Part shown: piece by piece, positions 2,798 through 26,123 of the stretch
Layout of the letters: each line of letters begins with the position of its first letter
Position numbering within the stretch: the stretch's first letter is position 1
NCBI RefSeq assembly: GCF_031458235.1
Contig: NZ_JAVDYB010000001.1
Location: 4,423,001-4,487,000 of the forward strand
Length of the DNA stretch: 64,000 nt
Direction: 5' to 3'
Source of the DNA: Catenuloplanes atrovinosus
Lineage (GTDB): Bacteria; Actinomycetota; Actinomycetes; Mycobacteriales; Micromonosporaceae
Notes under the pieces: model-generated
The model's database searches: none
What the model was told of the DNA's origin: nothing
The model's input: the letters and a program-made list of their open reading frames with translations, nothing else
Translations under genes and position numbers: made by a program

Positions 2798-3336
2798 GGT
2801 CCTGAGTCTTTCTAGCGCCGGCAGCCATGCCCGTCGCGCTGCCCGGTCGCGGTCCGGCCAGTCCGCACCTCTCTGCAGTTGCCCACCGAGGCAGGGATGG
2901 CGGGTGGATGCGCGCTCATGCCGAAGAGCGCGCACGCGATCTTGCTAATAGGCCGATATGGCCTGGCCCGTTAGAGACTTGTATTCCGGGTGCGGTCCTG
3001 TTTCAGTGATTGCGCGTGTCGATGCCGATCAGCGCGGTCTGTGGTGGTGGAGGTCCGCGCTGGATCTACCGGATAATGGTCATGTCCGCGATTTGTCGTG
3101 GACTCCGCCTGGGGCATGTGTGGATCTAAGTATCGGCTGGTGGGGCGATTTGCTGTGACCGCTGGCGGCGCGGTCAGACTTATTCGACGTCGACTCATGT
3201 CGGTGATCTGACATGTGAATTGATGGGTTTCGGCGTGGCGGGTGCGGTTTGGGTGGGCAGTCGAGAGTCCAATTTGGCGCCGGGTGTCGATGGACGTAGC
3301 GGTTTCCTATTGATCTTTTGGTGGTGTGGGGGTTCG
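2798..3336. other. non-coding spacer upstream of the conflict cassette
   Basis: No convincing gene. Base composition from about 2900 to 3330 is visibly less GC-rich than the neighbouring genes, and the short open frames in both directions lack ribosome sites and recognisable protein sequence. It separates the ABC exporter operon from the Trypco1/CHAT cassette and must hold the cassette promoter, but no clear -35/-10 pair was picked out by eye. Confidence 0.5.
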
Positions 3337-3603
3337 GTGGCGCAGACGGTTCCGGTGCGTGTGGGTGCGGTCGAGGTCCTGCTGGAGGCGGTTTCGGTGC
3401 CGGGTTCGCAGCAGACGTCGGCAGGGGGCCGGGTGGCGGATTACGCCGCGGGTGCGTTCGAGCGGGCTCAGGTGGTGTTGGAGGAGGTCGCGGTGTCGAT
3501 GGGGCGGATCGTGGGCCGGGTCGGTAGCCCTGAGTTGGTGAAGGAAGAGTTCGGGGTGAAGGAGTCGGTGCCGGCTGTGGGGCGGGTGGAGGCGGCTTCG
3601 TGA
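3337..3603 (+). CDS. Trypco1-like (trypsin-co-occurring) small protein
   Basis: Small protein of 88 residues from the GTG at 3337. An in-frame ATG exists at 3220, but the extra residues look non-protein-like and the region is spacer-like. The sequence starts with a strand-rich stretch (VPVRVGAVEVLLEAV), then a helix (AFERAQVVLEEVAVSM) and ends with the VKEEFGVKES motif. This resembles the Trypco1 (CU044_2847-type) proteins found next to trypsin/CHAT/STAND genes in predicted bacterial conflict systems. Its stop overlaps the start of the next gene by 4 nt (GTGA), so the two are translationally coupled. It is probably a regulator, adaptor or substrate of the downstream protease-NLR. The family call is from remembered motif shape, not a search. 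Confidence 0.7.
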   Translation: MAQTVPVRVGAVEVLLEAVSVPGSQQTSAGGRVADYAAGAFERAQVVLEEVAVSMGRIVGRVGSPELVKEEFGVKESVPAVGRVEAAS

Positions 3604-6600
3604 CCGATGATGTGACGGTGTCCGGCCTGGGTTTTCTTGGCTGGGTGGCCGACGCTGATGACACGGCGGTGGGGACCTGTTTCCAGGTGGAGGCGGGTGT
3701 CTTGGTCACGGCGCGTCACGTGCTGGCCGATGCCGGTGCGGCTGGGGTGGGTGATGCCGTCCGGGTGGCGCCGATCGGTGGTGGCCCGGGGCGGGAAGCC
3801 GTGGTGGTGCGGGTGGACGAGGTTCATGATCTCGCGGTGCTGACGACCGGAATCCCGTTGCCCGACTCGTGTGTGCGGCTGATCGTGTCGGATGCGGTGC
3901 GTGATGACGAGCCGGTGTCTATTGCCGGGTATCCCACGGTGGAGGACGCGGGCATCTCGTACGAGTTGTTGACGTCGGGTGGCCGGTGGCGGGGTGCGGT
4001 GCTGCGGGACAGGGTGTTGTGGTCGCGGTTGCAGGCCGATGCGGTGATGCCGGGTATGAGTGGTGCACCGGTGCTGCGGGCCGCTGATCGGGCGGTGGTG
4101 GGTGTGGTGTCCGGCCGGTACAACTCGGTGGACGGGTGGCTGGCCGGCGCGGTGTGGGTGGCGCGGGTGGAGGATCTGCGGCCGCTGCTGGACGGCGTGG
4201 CTCGTGTGGAGATTGAGGACGACCTGCCGCCGGGGGCGCGGCTGGATGTGGTGCTGGAGGTGTCGGACTCGCGGGTGCGGCTGTCCGGGGCCGGTGAGGA
4301 TGTGACCGCCGCGCATCGGGGGGTGTCGCCGGGTCTGGTGAATGCGCTGCATGATGTCCGGCGGGAACGCGGGCGTCCTCGTGCGGTGGTGCGGGACGAC
4401 CTCGGCGTGGTGCAGAGTGCGCCGGGTGTGGTGTCGCTGCGCCGTGCGGGTGAGCTGCTCGCGGAGTCGTTTCTGCCGGTTGCGGTGGCGCAGGCTCTGG
4501 CCCGGCTGCTGCACCGGGCGCAGCGGGCGCATGTTCCCGTGCGGGTGGGTGTGGAGGCGCCAGGGCGTTGGGCGTTGCCGTGGGAGGCGCTGCCGGATCC
4601 GGTGACCGGTCGCCCGTTGGTGCTTCATGATCTGGTGTCGGTGTATCGGCGGGTGCCGGCGGCGGGTTCCCGGTCGGCGCCGGTGGCGGGTCCGTTGCGG
4701 ATCGTGGTGGCCATCGCGTCGCCGGAGATCGGTGGCGGACCGTTGCTGGATTATGAGCGGGAGCTGGGCGCGGTGCTGGACGCCGTGCATTCGGCGCATC
4801 GCAGCCGGGCGGTGGTGCGGATCGTGCCGTTCGCGACGACCACGGCGATTCGTGCGGTGCTGTCCGAGGACACCACTCATGTGCTGCACCTGTCGGCGCA
4901 CGGGGCTCCTGGGCTGTTGCATCTGGAGGATGAGCAGGGCAGCGCGCGGGGGGTCGACGCGGCCACGTTCGTGCGGGAGGCGGTCCCGGAGGGCCGGATG
5001 CCGCGGGTGATCTCTCTGGCCGCCTGCTACACCGACGCCGAGGGTGAGGACGGCGCGCAGTCCTTCGCCGCGCAACTGGCCCAGCACGGTGCCGGGGCGG
5101 TGATCGCGACACAGACGTCGGTGACGGATGTGTATGCCACCCGCCTGTTCGCCCGGGTGTATGCGGAACTTGCCGGGTCCGGGTCGCCGGATGTCGTCGC
5201 CGCCGTCGCGCAGGCCCGCCGGGCGGTGCAGCATGGCTTCGCCACCGGCGCGGACGCCGTGGCGCAGGCGGTGGCGGGGATGGACGAGTGGAGTGTGGTC
5301 AGCGTGCTGGCCGGCGCCCCCACGGTGAGCGTGGTGGACGGTACGGCTTCTGCTGTCCGGCGGGTGGAGACGGTTCCGGATCTGAAAGGTCTGCTGGCGC
5401 GGCCGGTGGGCCAGTTCGTCGGCCGCCGGCACGCCCAGCGGATGCTGCCGGGCCTGCTGCGTGGTGACGGCGCAGCGGGGGTGTTGCTGTATGGGATCGG
5501 TGGGATCGGGAAGACCACTCTGGCCGCGGAGCTGATCCGCCGACTGCTGGACACGACGCAAGACTGGCAGTTGGTCACCGTGACCGGGCCGGTCACGGTG
5601 GACGGTGTGCTAACCGCGGTGGCCGGCGCGGCGCGCCGGGACCTGCTGCGCCGCGAGGAGCTGTTCGGGGCCGCGGTGGTCGCGGTGCAGGCGGCGAGCC
5701 GGGCGGACCTGCCGTGGCAGGACCGCCTCGGCCTGCTCCGGGAGGACGTGCTGTCCGACACGGCGATCCTGCTGGTGCTGGACAACTTCGAGGACAACCT
5801 GGCCCCCGGCACCGGGCGGGACTGGTCGATCACGGACCCGAACCTGGAAGGGCTGCTGACCGCGTGGCTTGGCAGCCCCGGCCGCAGCCGGCTGCTGATC
5901 ACCAGCCGGCACCCGTTTGCTCCCGATGCCGCGGCTACCGGCCGGCTGCACGCCTATCAGGTGCCGCCGCTGAGCCTGGCCGAGACCCGGAAGCTGATGT
6001 GGTCGCTGCCCCGCCTCGACCGGCACGCCACAGACCCGCCCGCCCGGGAACGGGTCTGGCGCACCGTCGGCGGGCACCCCCGGGCGCTGGAGTACCTGGA
6101 CGCGCTGCTGCCCGGCGAACAACCCGCCACGGCGGGTCAGGCGCGTTTCGCCGACATCACCCAACGGCTGCACAACGCGGTCCAGGACCGTCTCGGCCCT
6201 ACCGAGTCCACCACGTGGCTACAGCAGAAGCGGACCCTCGACGCCGCGCTCGCCGATACCGTCACCCTCGCCGCCGACGACGTCCTGCTCACCGAACACC
6301 TGACCCGGCTCACCCCCATCGAAGACGCCGTCACCACCCTGGCCGCGCTCAGCGTCTACCGCGAGCCCGTCGACACCAGCGCACTGCTGTTCCACATCGG
6401 TGTCCCCGACCCGGAACGGGCCGACACACCCGACCGCGCCGAGACCATGGCGCAGGTGCGTGACCTGCTCTCCCGCTACCGGCTCGACCTCAACCAGATC
6501 GACGAAGCAGCAGGTCCGGACAGCCCGTTGACACCGCAGGACCGCACGCTGCTGGCCCGGCTCGCCGATGAGGCCTCCCGGCCGCCTCATCCGCCGTTCA

Positions 6601-8099
6601 CCGCCCCGGCCGGACTCGGCGGCCTGATCCGGCAACTGTCCGCGACCAGCCTGATCACCACCCTCGACGACGGCCGGGTGGTGATGCACCGGTGGACCGC
6701 CACCGAACTGCACCACCGCTGGAACAGCCCAGCCGGGCACCACCACCAACCGGCACTCGTCACGACCGCCCACCACGCAGCCGCCGCCTACTGGCGATGG
6801 CGCGTGAACGCCTGGCCGCAAGACCGCGCCGTCGACCTCCACGACCTCGAGGAGGCCCGCCACCACCTGCTCGCCGCCGGAGACCCGGACACCGCCGGCA
6901 CCATCACCGAGTACATCTGCTCCCAGCTCCACGACTGGGGCGCATGGGACCACGAGACCAGCCTCATCCACGACACGCTCCGCTGGCTCCCCGCCGACTC
7001 ACCCCGCCGCCCCGCCTGGTACCACCAGCTCGGCATCCTCGCCCAGGACCGGGGCGACTACCCCGAAGCCGAACGCCGCTACCAGCAATCCCTCACCATC
7101 GACGAGGAACTCGGCAACCGGGCCGACATGGCCACCAGCTACCACCAGCTCGGCATCCTCGCCCAGGACCGGGGCGACTACCCCGAAGCCGAACGCCGCT
7201 ACCAGCAATCCCTCACCATCAAGGAGGAACTCGGCAACCGAGCCGGCGCCGCCACCAGCTACCACCAGCTCGGCATCCTCGCCCAGGACCGGGGCGACTA
7301 CCCCGAAGCCGAACGCCGCTACCAGCAATCCCTCACCATCTTCGAGGAGCTCGGCAACCGGGCCGGCGCCGCCACCAGCTACCACCAACTCGGCAACCTC
7401 GCCTACCTCGCCGGTGACTACCCGGAAGCCGAACGCCGCTACCAGCAATCCCTCACCGTCAAAGAGGAACTCGGCAACCGAGCCGGCGCCGCCAACAGCT
7501 ACCACCAGCTCGGCATCCTCGCCCAGGACCGGGGCGACTACCCCGAAGCCGAACGCCGCTACCAGCAATCCCTCACCATCTTCGAGGAGCTCGGCAACCG
7601 GGCCGGCGCCGCCAACAGCTACCACCAGCTCGGCATCCTCGCCCAGGCCCGGGGCGACTACCCCGAAGCCGAACGCCGCTACCAGCAATCCCTCACCATC
7701 TTCGAGGAACTCGGCAACCGGGCCGGCATGGCCGGCAGCTACCACCAGCTCGGCATCCTCGCCCAGGCCCGGGGCGACTACCCCGAAGCCGAACGCCGCT
7801 ACCAGCAATCCCTCACCCTCTTCGAGGAACTCGGCAACCAGCCCAGTATTGCCACCACGATCAGCCAACTCGGGAATCTACGAGCCGACATGAACGACCT
7901 CGCCGGAGCGGTACCACTTCACTGCCAAGCACTGGCGATACGGCTGTCCATCGGCGTACCGCAAGCCGAAAACAACATCGCCCGCCTCCGAGACCTCCGC
8001 ACGAAGCTTGGCGACACAAATTTCTCCGTAGCGGCCAGGACCGTCTTCGACGAACGGTCCTTTATGACCTTGATCGCCATACTCGACCAAACAGGCTAG
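3600..8099 (+). CDS. Trypsin-CHAT-STAND NTPase-TPR protein (NLR-like predicted conflict effector)
   Basis: A 1499-residue multidomain protein. Residues ~1-200 are a trypsin-like serine protease with a visible triad: H40 (TARHV), D77 (HDLAVL) and S154 (PGMSGAPV). Residues ~220-580 hold a CHAT caspase-like protease with H434 (HLSAHG) and C476 (SLAACYTD). Residues ~605-900 form a STAND/NB-ARC NTPase with Walker A GIGGIGKTT (K638), Walker B LLVLDNFED (D728), an arginine-containing sensor strand (LLITSR) and a GxP-type motif (GGHPRAL). A winged-helix-like region follows, then 40-residue TPR repeats (~1140-1420) and a degenerate C-terminal repeat. The architecture is that of an NTP-dependent sensor-effector: TPRs sense, STAND oligomerises, the proteases act. 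It starts at GTG 3600 inside the Trypco1 stop. The target and trigger are unknown. Codon use changes within the gene: G/T-rich third positions early, C-rich after about 6 kb. Confidence 0.93.
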   Translation: MTDDVTVSGLGFLGWVADADDTAVGTCFQVEAGVLVTARHVLADAGAAGVGDAVRVAPIGGGPGREAVVVRVDEVHDLAVLTTGIPLPDSCVRLIVSDAVRDDEPVSIAGYPTVEDAGISYELLTSGGRWRGAVLRDRVLWSRLQADAVMPGMSGAPVLRAADRAVVGVVSGRYNSVDGWLAGAVWVARVEDLRPLLDGVARVEIEDDLPPGARLDVVLEVSDSRVRLSGAGEDVTAAHRGVSPGLVNALHDVRRERGRPRAVVRDDLGVVQSAPGVVSLRRAGELLAESFLPVAVAQALARLLHRAQRAHVPVRVGVEAPGRWALPWEALPDPVTGRPLVLHDLVSVYRRVPAAGSRSAPVAGPLRIVVAIASPEIGGGPLLDYERELGAVLDAVHSAHRSRAVVRIVPFATTTAIRAVLSEDTTHVLHLSAHGAPGLLHLEDEQGSARGVDAATFVREAVPEGRMPRVISLAACYTDAEGEDGAQSFAAQLAQHGAGAVIATQTSVTDVYATRLFARVYAELAGSGSPDVVAAVAQARRAVQHGFATGADAVAQAVAGMDEWSVVSVLAGAPTVSVVDGTASAVRRVETVPDLKGLLARPVGQFVGRRHAQRMLPGLLRGDGAAGVLLYGIGGIGKTTLAAELIRRLLDTTQDWQLVTVTGPVTVDGVLTAVAGAARRDLLRREELFGAAVVAVQAASRADLPWQDRLGLLREDVLSDTAILLVLDNFEDNLAPGTGRDWSITDPNLEGLLTAWLGSPGRSRLLITSRHPFAPDAAATGRLHAYQVPPLSLAETRKLMWSLPRLDRHATDPPARERVWRTVGGHPRALEYLDALLPGEQPATAGQARFADITQRLHNAVQDRLGPTESTTWLQQKRTLDAALADTVTLAADDVLLTEHLTRLTPIEDAVTTLAALSVYREPVDTSALLFHIGVPDPERADTPDRAETMAQVRDLLSRYRLDLNQIDEAAGPDSPLTPQDRTLLARLADEASRPPHPPFTAPAGLGGLIRQLSATSLITTLDDGRVVMHRWTATELHHRWNSPAGHHHQPALVTTAHHAAAAYWRWRVNAWPQDRAVDLHDLEEARHHLLAAGDPDTAGTITEYICSQLHDWGAWDHETSLIHDTLRWLPADSPRRPAWYHQLGILAQDRGDYPEAERRYQQSLTIDEELGNRADMATSYHQLGILAQDRGDYPEAERRYQQSLTIKEELGNRAGAATSYHQLGILAQDRGDYPEAERRYQQSLTIFEELGNRAGAATSYHQLGNLAYLAGDYPEAERRYQQSLTVKEELGNRAGAANSYHQLGILAQDRGDYPEAERRYQQSLTIFEELGNRAGAANSYHQLGILAQARGDYPEAERRYQQSLTIFEELGNRAGMAGSYHQLGILAQARGDYPEAERRYQQSLTLFEELGNQPSIATTISQLGNLRADMNDLAGAVPLHCQALAIRLSIGVPQAENNIARLRDLRTKLGDTNFSVAARTVFDERSFMTLIAILDQTG
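7018..7857 (+). repeat. seven near-identical 120-bp tandem repeats encoding TPR units
   Basis: Exact 120-bp periodicity, seven units, each encoding a 40-residue TPR built on YHQLGILAQDRGDYPEAERR and YQQSLTI-EELGNRA. The first 60 bp of units 1, 2, 3 and 5 are identical by eye; units 6 and 7 differ from them at the Q-D/A-R codon; unit 4 is the most diverged. Differences cluster at the residue after LTI/LTV/LTL (D, K, F, K, F, F, F) and at the three or four residues before the next YHQ. This is a recently amplified or gene-converted array that can change copy number by recombination. Confidence 0.95.
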
Positions 8100-9576: not shown

Positions 9577-9788
9577 CTAGGAGGCCATGCGCTCCCGCAG
9601 TGACCGGGGGCGCAGGTCGGTCCAGGTGCGCTCCACGTAGTCGAGGCAGGCGGCCCGTGACTCCTCGCCGAAGGCGACCGTCCAGCCGGCGGGCACGTCG
9701 ACGAAGGAGGGCCACAGCGAGTGCTGGTCCTCGTCGTTGACCAGCACCAGGTACCGGCCGTCGGGGTCCTCGAAGGGGTTGGTCGTCA

Positions 9789-9789
<1 letters not shown>
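9577..9789 (-). CDS. mbtH: MbtH-like protein
   Basis: A 70-residue MbtH-family protein, the small chaperone or activator that binds NRPS adenylation domains. The family core is present: [33 protein letters not shown] and the C-terminal [14 protein letters not shown]. The conserved tryptophans are visible and the length is usual. Its ATG overlaps the NRPS stop by one base (TGATG), so the two are translationally coupled. It should be required for adenylation by some or all four A domains of the upstream NRPS. Confidence 0.95.

Positions 9790-26123
<16,334 letters not shown>

What the first reader, a model, noticed from the sequence alone, without database searches (positions are those of the whole stretch)
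3337..8099. Two-gene conflict cassette: Trypco1-like protein plus a trypsin-CHAT-STAND-TPR fusion
Seen: one 1499-residue protein with two complete protease centres (H40/D77/S154 and H434/C476), a STAND NTPase with intact Walker A and B, and a TPR array, translationally coupled to an 88-residue partner. Established: trypsin, CHAT and STAND modules with Trypco-type partners occur in predicted NTP-dependent bacterial conflict systems, and CHAT proteases gated by TPRs act in some immune systems. Inference: the TPRs sense an invader product, the STAND domain oligomerises, and one protease activates or cleaves through the other or the small partner. A double-protease NLR in one chain is unusual and untested.
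Basis: partly seen in the sequence, partly recalled or inferred. Interest (0 to 1): 0.88.

Follow-up and report, generated by a model that had tools for sequence, protein, structure and literature searches.

The report
Two-protease bacterial NLR-like sensor cassette
An actinobacterium carries a large immune-receptor-like protein that joins two different proteases to a molecular switch and a fast-changing repeat sensor; it belongs to a small family, and its usual small partner protein is cut short in this copy.

Summary
ORF 3600-8099 (1499 aa) is Trypsin_2-CHAT-STAND-TPR in one chain and overlaps a small upstream ORF by GTGA. I found Trypsin_2-CHAT-STAND in 12 loci of 10 genomes, nine of them in the window's own family; TPRs follow in the same frame in 11. 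H40/D77/S154, H434/C476 and K638 are kept in 12 of 12. The partner is Trypco1 above the Pfam cut-off in 8 of the other 11 loci, Trypco2 in 2, and missing in 1. In the window it is a truncated Trypco1: a 12-bp internal gap and loss of the C-terminal segment that 11 of 11 aligned relatives keep. Trees suggest trypsin and Trypco were swapped together onto the CHAT-STAND-TPR chassis; sister chassis carry TIR/SEFIR in the trypsin slot (4 of 5 read). Differences between the TPR repeats concentrate on positions 2, 5, 9, 12 and 13, the known ligand-facing residues, in 7 of 7 arrays tested, as described for fungal NLRs. Best reading: an NLR-like receptor in which a diversifying TPR surface senses a protein, STAND assembles, and CHAT plus an exchangeable trypsin are the proteolytic output. 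A defence role is inferred, not shown. New variant of a known kind.

The parts
3337..3603 (+). 88-aa truncated Trypco1-like protein, stop included
   Evidence: Pfam Trypco1 E 0.016, below cut-off; 72% identical to full-length Trypco1 of paralogue L032; pN/pS 0.34 over the first 74 codons against L032
3562..3600 (+). non-homologous tail in place of the C-terminal segment of Trypco1
   Evidence: 11 of 11 other aligned Trypco1 rows keep that segment; DNA gap against L032 and L030
3600..8099 (+). 1499-aa Trypsin_2-CHAT-STAND-TPR protein, GTG start overlapping the partner's stop
3672..4106 (+). Trypsin_2 domain (aa 25-169); H40 at 3717-3719, D77 at 3828-3830, S154 at 4059-4061
   Evidence: Pfam E 6.3e-14; triad identical in 12 of 12 homologues; coordinates
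4521..5237 (+). CHAT (caspase-clan) peptidase domain (aa 308-546); H434 at 4899-4901, C476 at 5025-5027
   Evidence: Pfam E 5.6e-18; dyad identical in 12 of 12; Foldseek best hit SAVED-CHAT 8tl0, E 4e-12, from a low-confidence model
5412..5792 (+). STAND/NB-ARC-like NTPase core (aa 605-731) with Walker A at 5493-5516 and Walker B at 5766-5792; LLITSR at 5892-5909 and GGHPRAL at 6069-6089 follow it
   Evidence: AAA_16 E 3.8e-6, NB-ARC E 0.007, both below their cut-offs; motifs; K638 in 12 of 12
7020..7859 (+). seven near-identical 120-bp TPR units (aa 1141-1420); the most varying positions are TPR 2, 13, 31 and 40
   Evidence: TRF period 120, 6.8 copies, 92% matches; TPR_12 E 1e-66; positional variation
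7860..7979 (+). degenerate capping TPR-like unit (aa 1421-1460)
   Evidence: unit listing

Best explanation
This is an NLR-like receptor protein with a protease output. The C-terminal TPR superhelix binds a (probably foreign) protein through its concave face. Binding switches the STAND NTPase, which assembles the chains. Assembly activates the CHAT protease, the constant output of the chassis, together with the N-terminal trypsin-like protease, which occupies an exchangeable output slot (TIR/SEFIR in sister proteins). Trypco1 or Trypco2 is a small partner that serves the trypsin domain, not CHAT or STAND. Shown here: the architecture, the conserved catalytic and nucleotide-binding residues, the Trypco linkage, different domains in the N-terminal slot, and TPR arrays with variation on ligand-facing positions. 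Inferred: sensing, oligomerisation, order of cleavage, a defence or cell-death outcome, and what Trypco does. In this copy Trypco1 is eroded, so it is either dispensable, still working as a truncated form, or replaced in trans by the intact Trypco1 of a paralogous cassette.
For: Domains and motifs. Twelve loci with Trypsin_2-CHAT-STAND (CHAT of L033), TPRs in the same frame in 11; both protease centres and the Walker lysine invariant in 12 of 12. Purifying selection between window and paralogue L032: pN/pS 0.24 trypsin, 0.17 CHAT, 0.38 STAND. Partners of the 11 other loci: 8 Trypco1 and 2 Trypco2 above curated cut-offs, 1 missing. The CHAT tree places the Trypco2 members L036/L074 beside L035 (support 0.98), whereas their trypsin sits on a branch of length about 3, so trypsin and Trypco seem to have changed together. 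Sister chassis carry TIR or SEFIR in front of CHAT in 4 of 5 examined, with CHAT His and Cys motifs present in 5 of 5. Trypco1-trypsin also occurs on an nSTAND1-WD40 chassis and others. TPR unit differences are enriched at positions 2, 5, 9, 12, 13 in 7 of 7 arrays tested (7 of the 12 loci), permutation p 0.0005 to 0.016; these are among the variable concave positions named in PMC1261162. Three cassettes of this kind in one genome.
Against: No experiment, and no defence genes among the window neighbours scanned: an ABC exporter pair and an NRPS. PADLOC gave only domain-level hits, no described system. Trypco1 is truncated in this copy and missing beside L070. In L073 the open frame carries no TPR match although a 138-bp repeat array lies within its coordinates, so that copy may be interrupted. 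The own-genome trypsin-STAND protein L034 has no Trypco1 match within its 16-kb locus and the genome has no Trypco2 match at E 0.01. L031 groups loosely with the TIR-type proteins in the CHAT tree (support 0.62), so a single origin of trypsin-CHAT is not shown. Positions 2, 5, 9, 12 and 13 are among the most variable in TPRs generally, so the pattern may partly be generic tolerance: N excess over S at those same codons is not significant (p 0.28). The comparison that is significant (ratio 1.82, p 1.5e-4) uses synonymous changes from all positions and pools non-independent units. Structure models are low confidence.
Confidence: 0.5

Rival explanations
1. It is a signalling regulator of development or secondary metabolism, like the AfsR-type SARP-NOD-TPR proteins, in which protease activity processes a regulator and is not an invader response.
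For: The window copy lies between an ABC exporter pair and a large NRPS gene; its TPRs match AfsR and HaaT models partially (scores far below cut-offs).
Against: The flanking ORFs picked by codon composition in the other loci look different in size and order (not annotated); TIR/SEFIR in the same slot of sister proteins and ligand-face TPR variation fit conflict better; no DNA-binding family among the Pfam hits shown (best 25 of 35).
Confidence: 0.15
2. It is an allorecognition or kin-discrimination receptor, as in fungal heterokaryon incompatibility, in which the TPR surface reads a self or neighbour protein.
For: Several TPR arrays are homogenised and vary on the concave face, as reported for fungal NLR TPRs (PMC4986451, passages); PMC10907252 raises this role for bacterial systems (passage). 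A filamentous host is my inference from the family.
Against: Nothing here separates self from phage ligands; the cassette is sporadic (at least 9 of 354 family genomes).
Confidence: 0.15
3. Trypco1 is the inhibitor (antitoxin-like) of the trypsin domain, and the whole works as a guarded toxin.
For: Tight linkage and translational overlap; Trypco type follows trypsin type.
Against: The window and L070 keep intact triads although their Trypco1 is truncated or missing. Not decisive, since both genomes hold other Trypco1 genes: five above cut-off in the own genome and three in G684.
Confidence: 0.15
4. The window cassette is decaying and no longer works.
For: Truncated Trypco1.
Against: Main ORF intact with all catalytic residues; substitutions on the window branch in the trypsin region are 21 synonymous to 6 non-synonymous; Trypco1 first 74 codons still at pN/pS 0.34.
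Confidence: 0.1

Closest known systems
Trypco-trypsin modules of NTP-dependent conflict systems (Kaur et al. 2020, PMC7159879; passages read)
   Same: Small Trypco1 or Trypco2 gene next to a trypsin-like peptidase, one or the other; peptidase fused N-terminally to a larger protein.
   Different: No VMAP domain among the Pfam hits shown for the protein and no MoxR or vWA among the neighbours scanned. That paper describes trypsin and caspase pairings as mutually exclusive in VMAP systems, while here trypsin and a caspase-clan CHAT share one chain.
Bacterial NLR-related STAND proteins (Avs, bNACHT)
   Same: N-terminal effector, STAND NTPase, C-terminal repeats.
   Different: Two peptidase domains before the STAND core; AAA_16/NB-ARC-like rather than NACHT; Trypco partner. 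Avs and bNACHT features are recalled or from search listings, not aligned here.
Craspase Csx29 (TPR-CHAT) and SAVED-CHAT
   Same: CHAT protease controlled by a sensor module; among the best structure-search hits (8tl0, 8eex, 7y8t).
   Different: No SAVED domain or CRISPR effector was seen in the protein or the neighbours scanned; an in-chain STAND NTPase and a second protease are fused.
Fungal NLRs with homogenised TPR repeats (Dyrka et al. 2014, PMC4986451; passages read)
   Same: Near-identical repeats with variation on the concave TPR face.
   Different: Bacterial; effector domains are proteases; positive selection is not demonstrated here.
Trypsin-activated pro-nuclease pairs and canu (PMC12799240; passages read)
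   Same: Trypsin-like or caspase-like protease as output of a defence protein, AVAST included.
   Different: No nuclease among the neighbouring ORFs scanned.

Membership tests
Trypco1 (PF19493) | profile match above the curated cut-off | tested here: not met
   window copy 16.2 bits against 24.6; 8 homologous partners pass
Trypco1 (PF19493) | gene adjacent to a trypsin-like peptidase gene | tested here: met
   GTGA overlap at 3600-3603
Trypsin_2 (PF13365) | profile match and His-Asp-Ser triad | tested here: met
   E 6.3e-14; triad in 12 of 12
CHAT (PF12770) | profile match and His-Cys dyad | tested here: met
   E 5.6e-18; dyad in 12 of 12
CHAT (PF12770) | proteolytic activity | not testable with these tools
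   needs purified protein
STAND NTPase / bacterial NLR-like | Walker A and B, sensor-like and GxP motifs before C-terminal repeats | tested here: met
   AAA_16 and NB-ARC profile scores of the window protein are below their cut-offs
STAND NTPase / bacterial NLR-like | ligand-driven oligomerisation | not testable with these tools
   needs biochemistry
VMAP ternary system | VMAP domain with MoxR and vWA genes | tested here: not met
   not among the best 25 of 35 Pfam hits of the protein nor in the nine neighbour stretches given to Pfam; other ORFs of the window were not scanned
Known anti-phage system in PADLOC-DB 2.0.0 | match to a described system's proteins | tested here: not met
   seven domain-level hits for the large protein, none for the small one

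The most novel reading that the evidence does not exclude
A bacterial NLR whose TPR receptor diversifies by turnover of near-identical repeats, with change focused on ligand-contacting residues and no retroelement needed, and which drives an in-chain two-protease relay: CHAT acts first, and the exchangeable trypsin (or TIR) executes under the control of a trypsin-specific partner.
Probability: 0.3. Interest if true: 0.82.

Novelty: new variant of a known kind. Interest (0 to 1): 0.57.

Why it matters
I know of no assigned function for Trypco1; only two papers of the held library use the word. Here its type changes together with the trypsin, and it is eroded in two members of one subclade, so its role can be tested by comparing natural copies. 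A double-protease chain would also test whether bacteria run a caspase-like initiator and a trypsin executor inside one receptor. The TPR arrays point to a way of diversifying a bacterial receptor that parallels fungal NLRs.

Tried and rejected
Structure prediction of aa 1-620 and of Trypco1, each from 3-row alignments, gave mean pLDDT 44.7 and 45.5. Only the CHAT fold search is used, as weak support; folds of the trypsin part and of Trypco1 are not claimed. Viral contigs: no relative. Phage records: one partial CHAT-region match of 21% coverage. Plasmid records: two partial matches. An empty-site comparison failed: in the 4 congeners the best-scoring matches to the exporter side are at 66-67% identity, and those to the other side lie in its NRPS part. 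Promoter and terminator scan of 2800-3700: none. Trypco1 against solved structures: nothing credible. A defence-island claim was rejected because the scanned neighbours are an exporter and an NRPS. Positive selection on the TPRs was considered and left unproven. The CHAT profile is not listed for L033 in hmmscan at E 0.001, though the genome search scores it 48.4 bits. Literature: a trypsin-CHAT-STAND fusion was not seen in the passages read of PMC7159879, PMC8195603 and PMC10907252, nor in the listings; supplementary tables could not be read, so a listing there is possible.

Full report
What is there. The two ORFs are real and overlap as GTGA. The 1499-aa protein holds Trypsin_2, CHAT, a STAND/NB-ARC-like NTPase and a TPR array, with Walker A, Walker B, LLITSR and GGHPRAL motifs in order.

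Relatives. In the own genome a search with aa 1-600 found two paralogues, at 84% (L032) and 48% (L033) identity over most of the query, and a trypsin-STAND protein without CHAT (L034). A sample of 298 genomes of the order gave 8 with any match at E 1e-10, 396 of the phylum gave 6, and the 354 genomes searched for the family gave 49 at E 1e-20. Most of these matches cover only the trypsin or only the CHAT part. I fetched and read the likeliest ones, not all. Pfam and alignment show Trypsin_2-CHAT-STAND in 12 loci: window, L032, L033, L070, L030 (Micromonospora chaiyaphumensis), L071, L072, L073, L031 (a metagenome-assembled actinomycete), L035, L036, L074 (CHAT of L033). They lie in 10 genomes: three are in the own genome, and L021/L030 and L041/L031 are the same DNA. 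Nine of the 10 genomes are in the window's family, so at least 9 of 354. The family name Micromonosporaceae is my inference from Micromonospora being in it. TPRs follow in the same frame in 11 of 12; in L030 only the first part is seen before the contig ends. In L073 the open frame has no TPR match although a 138-bp repeat array lies within its coordinates, so its frame may be interrupted. The genome-contig scan returned two of these loci.

Both proteases are under constraint. H40, D77, S154, H434, C476 and K638 are identical in 12 of 12. Between the window and L032 pN/pS is 0.24 in trypsin, 0.17 in CHAT, 0.38 in STAND and 0.56 after it. Against the more distant L071 the ratios are 0.52 to 0.63, probably because synonymous sites are near saturation. 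The five sister proteins without trypsin that I read keep the CHAT His and Cys motifs.

The partner. Pfam calls Trypco1 above cut-off in 8 partner proteins and Trypco2 in 2. In L032 and L033 the partner also overlaps the large gene (read by eye). L070 has no Trypco1 beside the gene: about five codons of a Trypco1-like start (VAQTV) run in frame into the trypsin start, and the three Trypco1 genes of that genome lie elsewhere. The window copy lacks 12 bp inside and the C-terminal segment, which 11 of 11 other aligned rows keep (three of these rows, L076, L037 and L078, come from other chassis). Its first 74 codons still show pN/pS 0.34 against L032, like L032 against L030 (0.35), so the truncation is either recent or tolerated. 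The own genome has five Trypco1 genes above cut-off and no Trypco2 match. Two of the five belong to L032 and L033; two others sit directly before ORFs whose starts look like trypsin domains (L098, L099; by eye, not scanned); the fifth follows a large unscanned ORF (L097).

Modules. In the CHAT tree L036 and L074 join L035 (support 0.98), but their trypsin lies far from all others, and they carry Trypco2. Trypsin and Trypco therefore seem to have been replaced as a unit, one event in this sample. L031 groups loosely (0.62) with the TIR-type proteins, so a single origin of trypsin-CHAT is not shown. Four of five examined sister proteins have TIR or SEFIR before CHAT, followed by a P-loop and TPRs; the fifth (L079) has no recognised domain there. 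Trypco1-trypsin also sits on an nSTAND1-WD40 protein (L037; domains, trypsin and Trypco1 by sequence) and its relative L038, on a short protein with hydrophobic segments (L076, by eye), and on L078.

TPR arrays. Several arrays are nearly identical at DNA level: 92% matches in the window, 93% in L033, 94% in L071, 96% in L074; others such as L070 and L072 are not. In the 7 arrays tested, of 12 loci, amino-acid differences between units are enriched at TPR positions 2, 5, 9, 12 and 13 in 7 of 7 (p 0.0005 to 0.016). PMC1261162 names 2, 5, 9, 12, 13, 33 and 34 as the most variable, concave positions (passages); I fixed the register by the LG at 7-8 and had looked at the unit listing before the test. 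Position 31 also varies strongly and is not on that list. Non-synonymous to synonymous rates are 1.21 at the five positions and 0.42 at the rest, Fisher p 3e-6; N excess at the five positions alone is not significant (p 0.28). Against the synonymous rate of all positions the ratio is 1.82, p 1.5e-4. Units are related by duplication, so these p values are optimistic. Fungal NLR TPRs show the concave pattern with positive selection (PMC4986451, passages).

Fold. The CHAT part of a low-confidence model matches SAVED-CHAT, Csx29, separase and caspases. Sequence search agrees for CHAT (8tl0, E 3e-6) and gives Spl and HtrA2 serine proteases for the trypsin part.

Mechanism and standing. The anatomy fits a STAND receptor with proteolytic output. 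I think CHAT is the constant output and trypsin the exchangeable one, with Trypco acting on trypsin. The order of cleavage, the trigger and the outcome are inference. Defence against phage is plausible by class and is not shown. The architecture is a new variant within known conflict and NLR-like systems. I found no description of this fusion in the papers searched, but could not read supplementary tables.

Noticed in passing
L077, L080, L039, L040: Sister architecture TIR or SEFIR-CHAT-STAND-TPR in genomes of the same family, with CHAT His and Cys motifs kept; L040 shows a P-loop but no STAND profile at the threshold used.
   Followed up: partly
L070:4710: Trypco1 missing; about five codons of its start (VAQTV) are fused in frame to the trypsin-CHAT protein, a second erosion of the partner in the same subclade.
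   Followed up: yes
L073:5651-8983: Trypsin_2-CHAT-STAND frame without a TPR match, although a 138-bp repeat array lies within its coordinates; possibly an interrupted frame.
   Followed up: partly
L034:6715-10269: Own-genome trypsin-NB-ARC protein with no Trypco1 match in its 16-kb locus and no Trypco2 match in the genome, an exception to the Trypco-trypsin linkage.
   Followed up: partly
window 9792-26123 (-): Very long ORF; the 2000 residues scanned hold NRPS condensation, adenylation, methyltransferase and carrier domains, and an MbtH-like domain is seen in the ORF 9577-11655 on the same strand.
   Followed up: no
L037:5694-9947, L038: Trypco1 next to a trypsin-like-nSTAND1-WD40 protein; nSTAND1 and WD40 were scanned in L037, the rest is by sequence similarity.
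   Followed up: no
TPR position 31 in the seven tested arrays: A helix-B position that varies strongly (F, K, D in the window; also E elsewhere) and lies outside the published concave list.
   Followed up: partly
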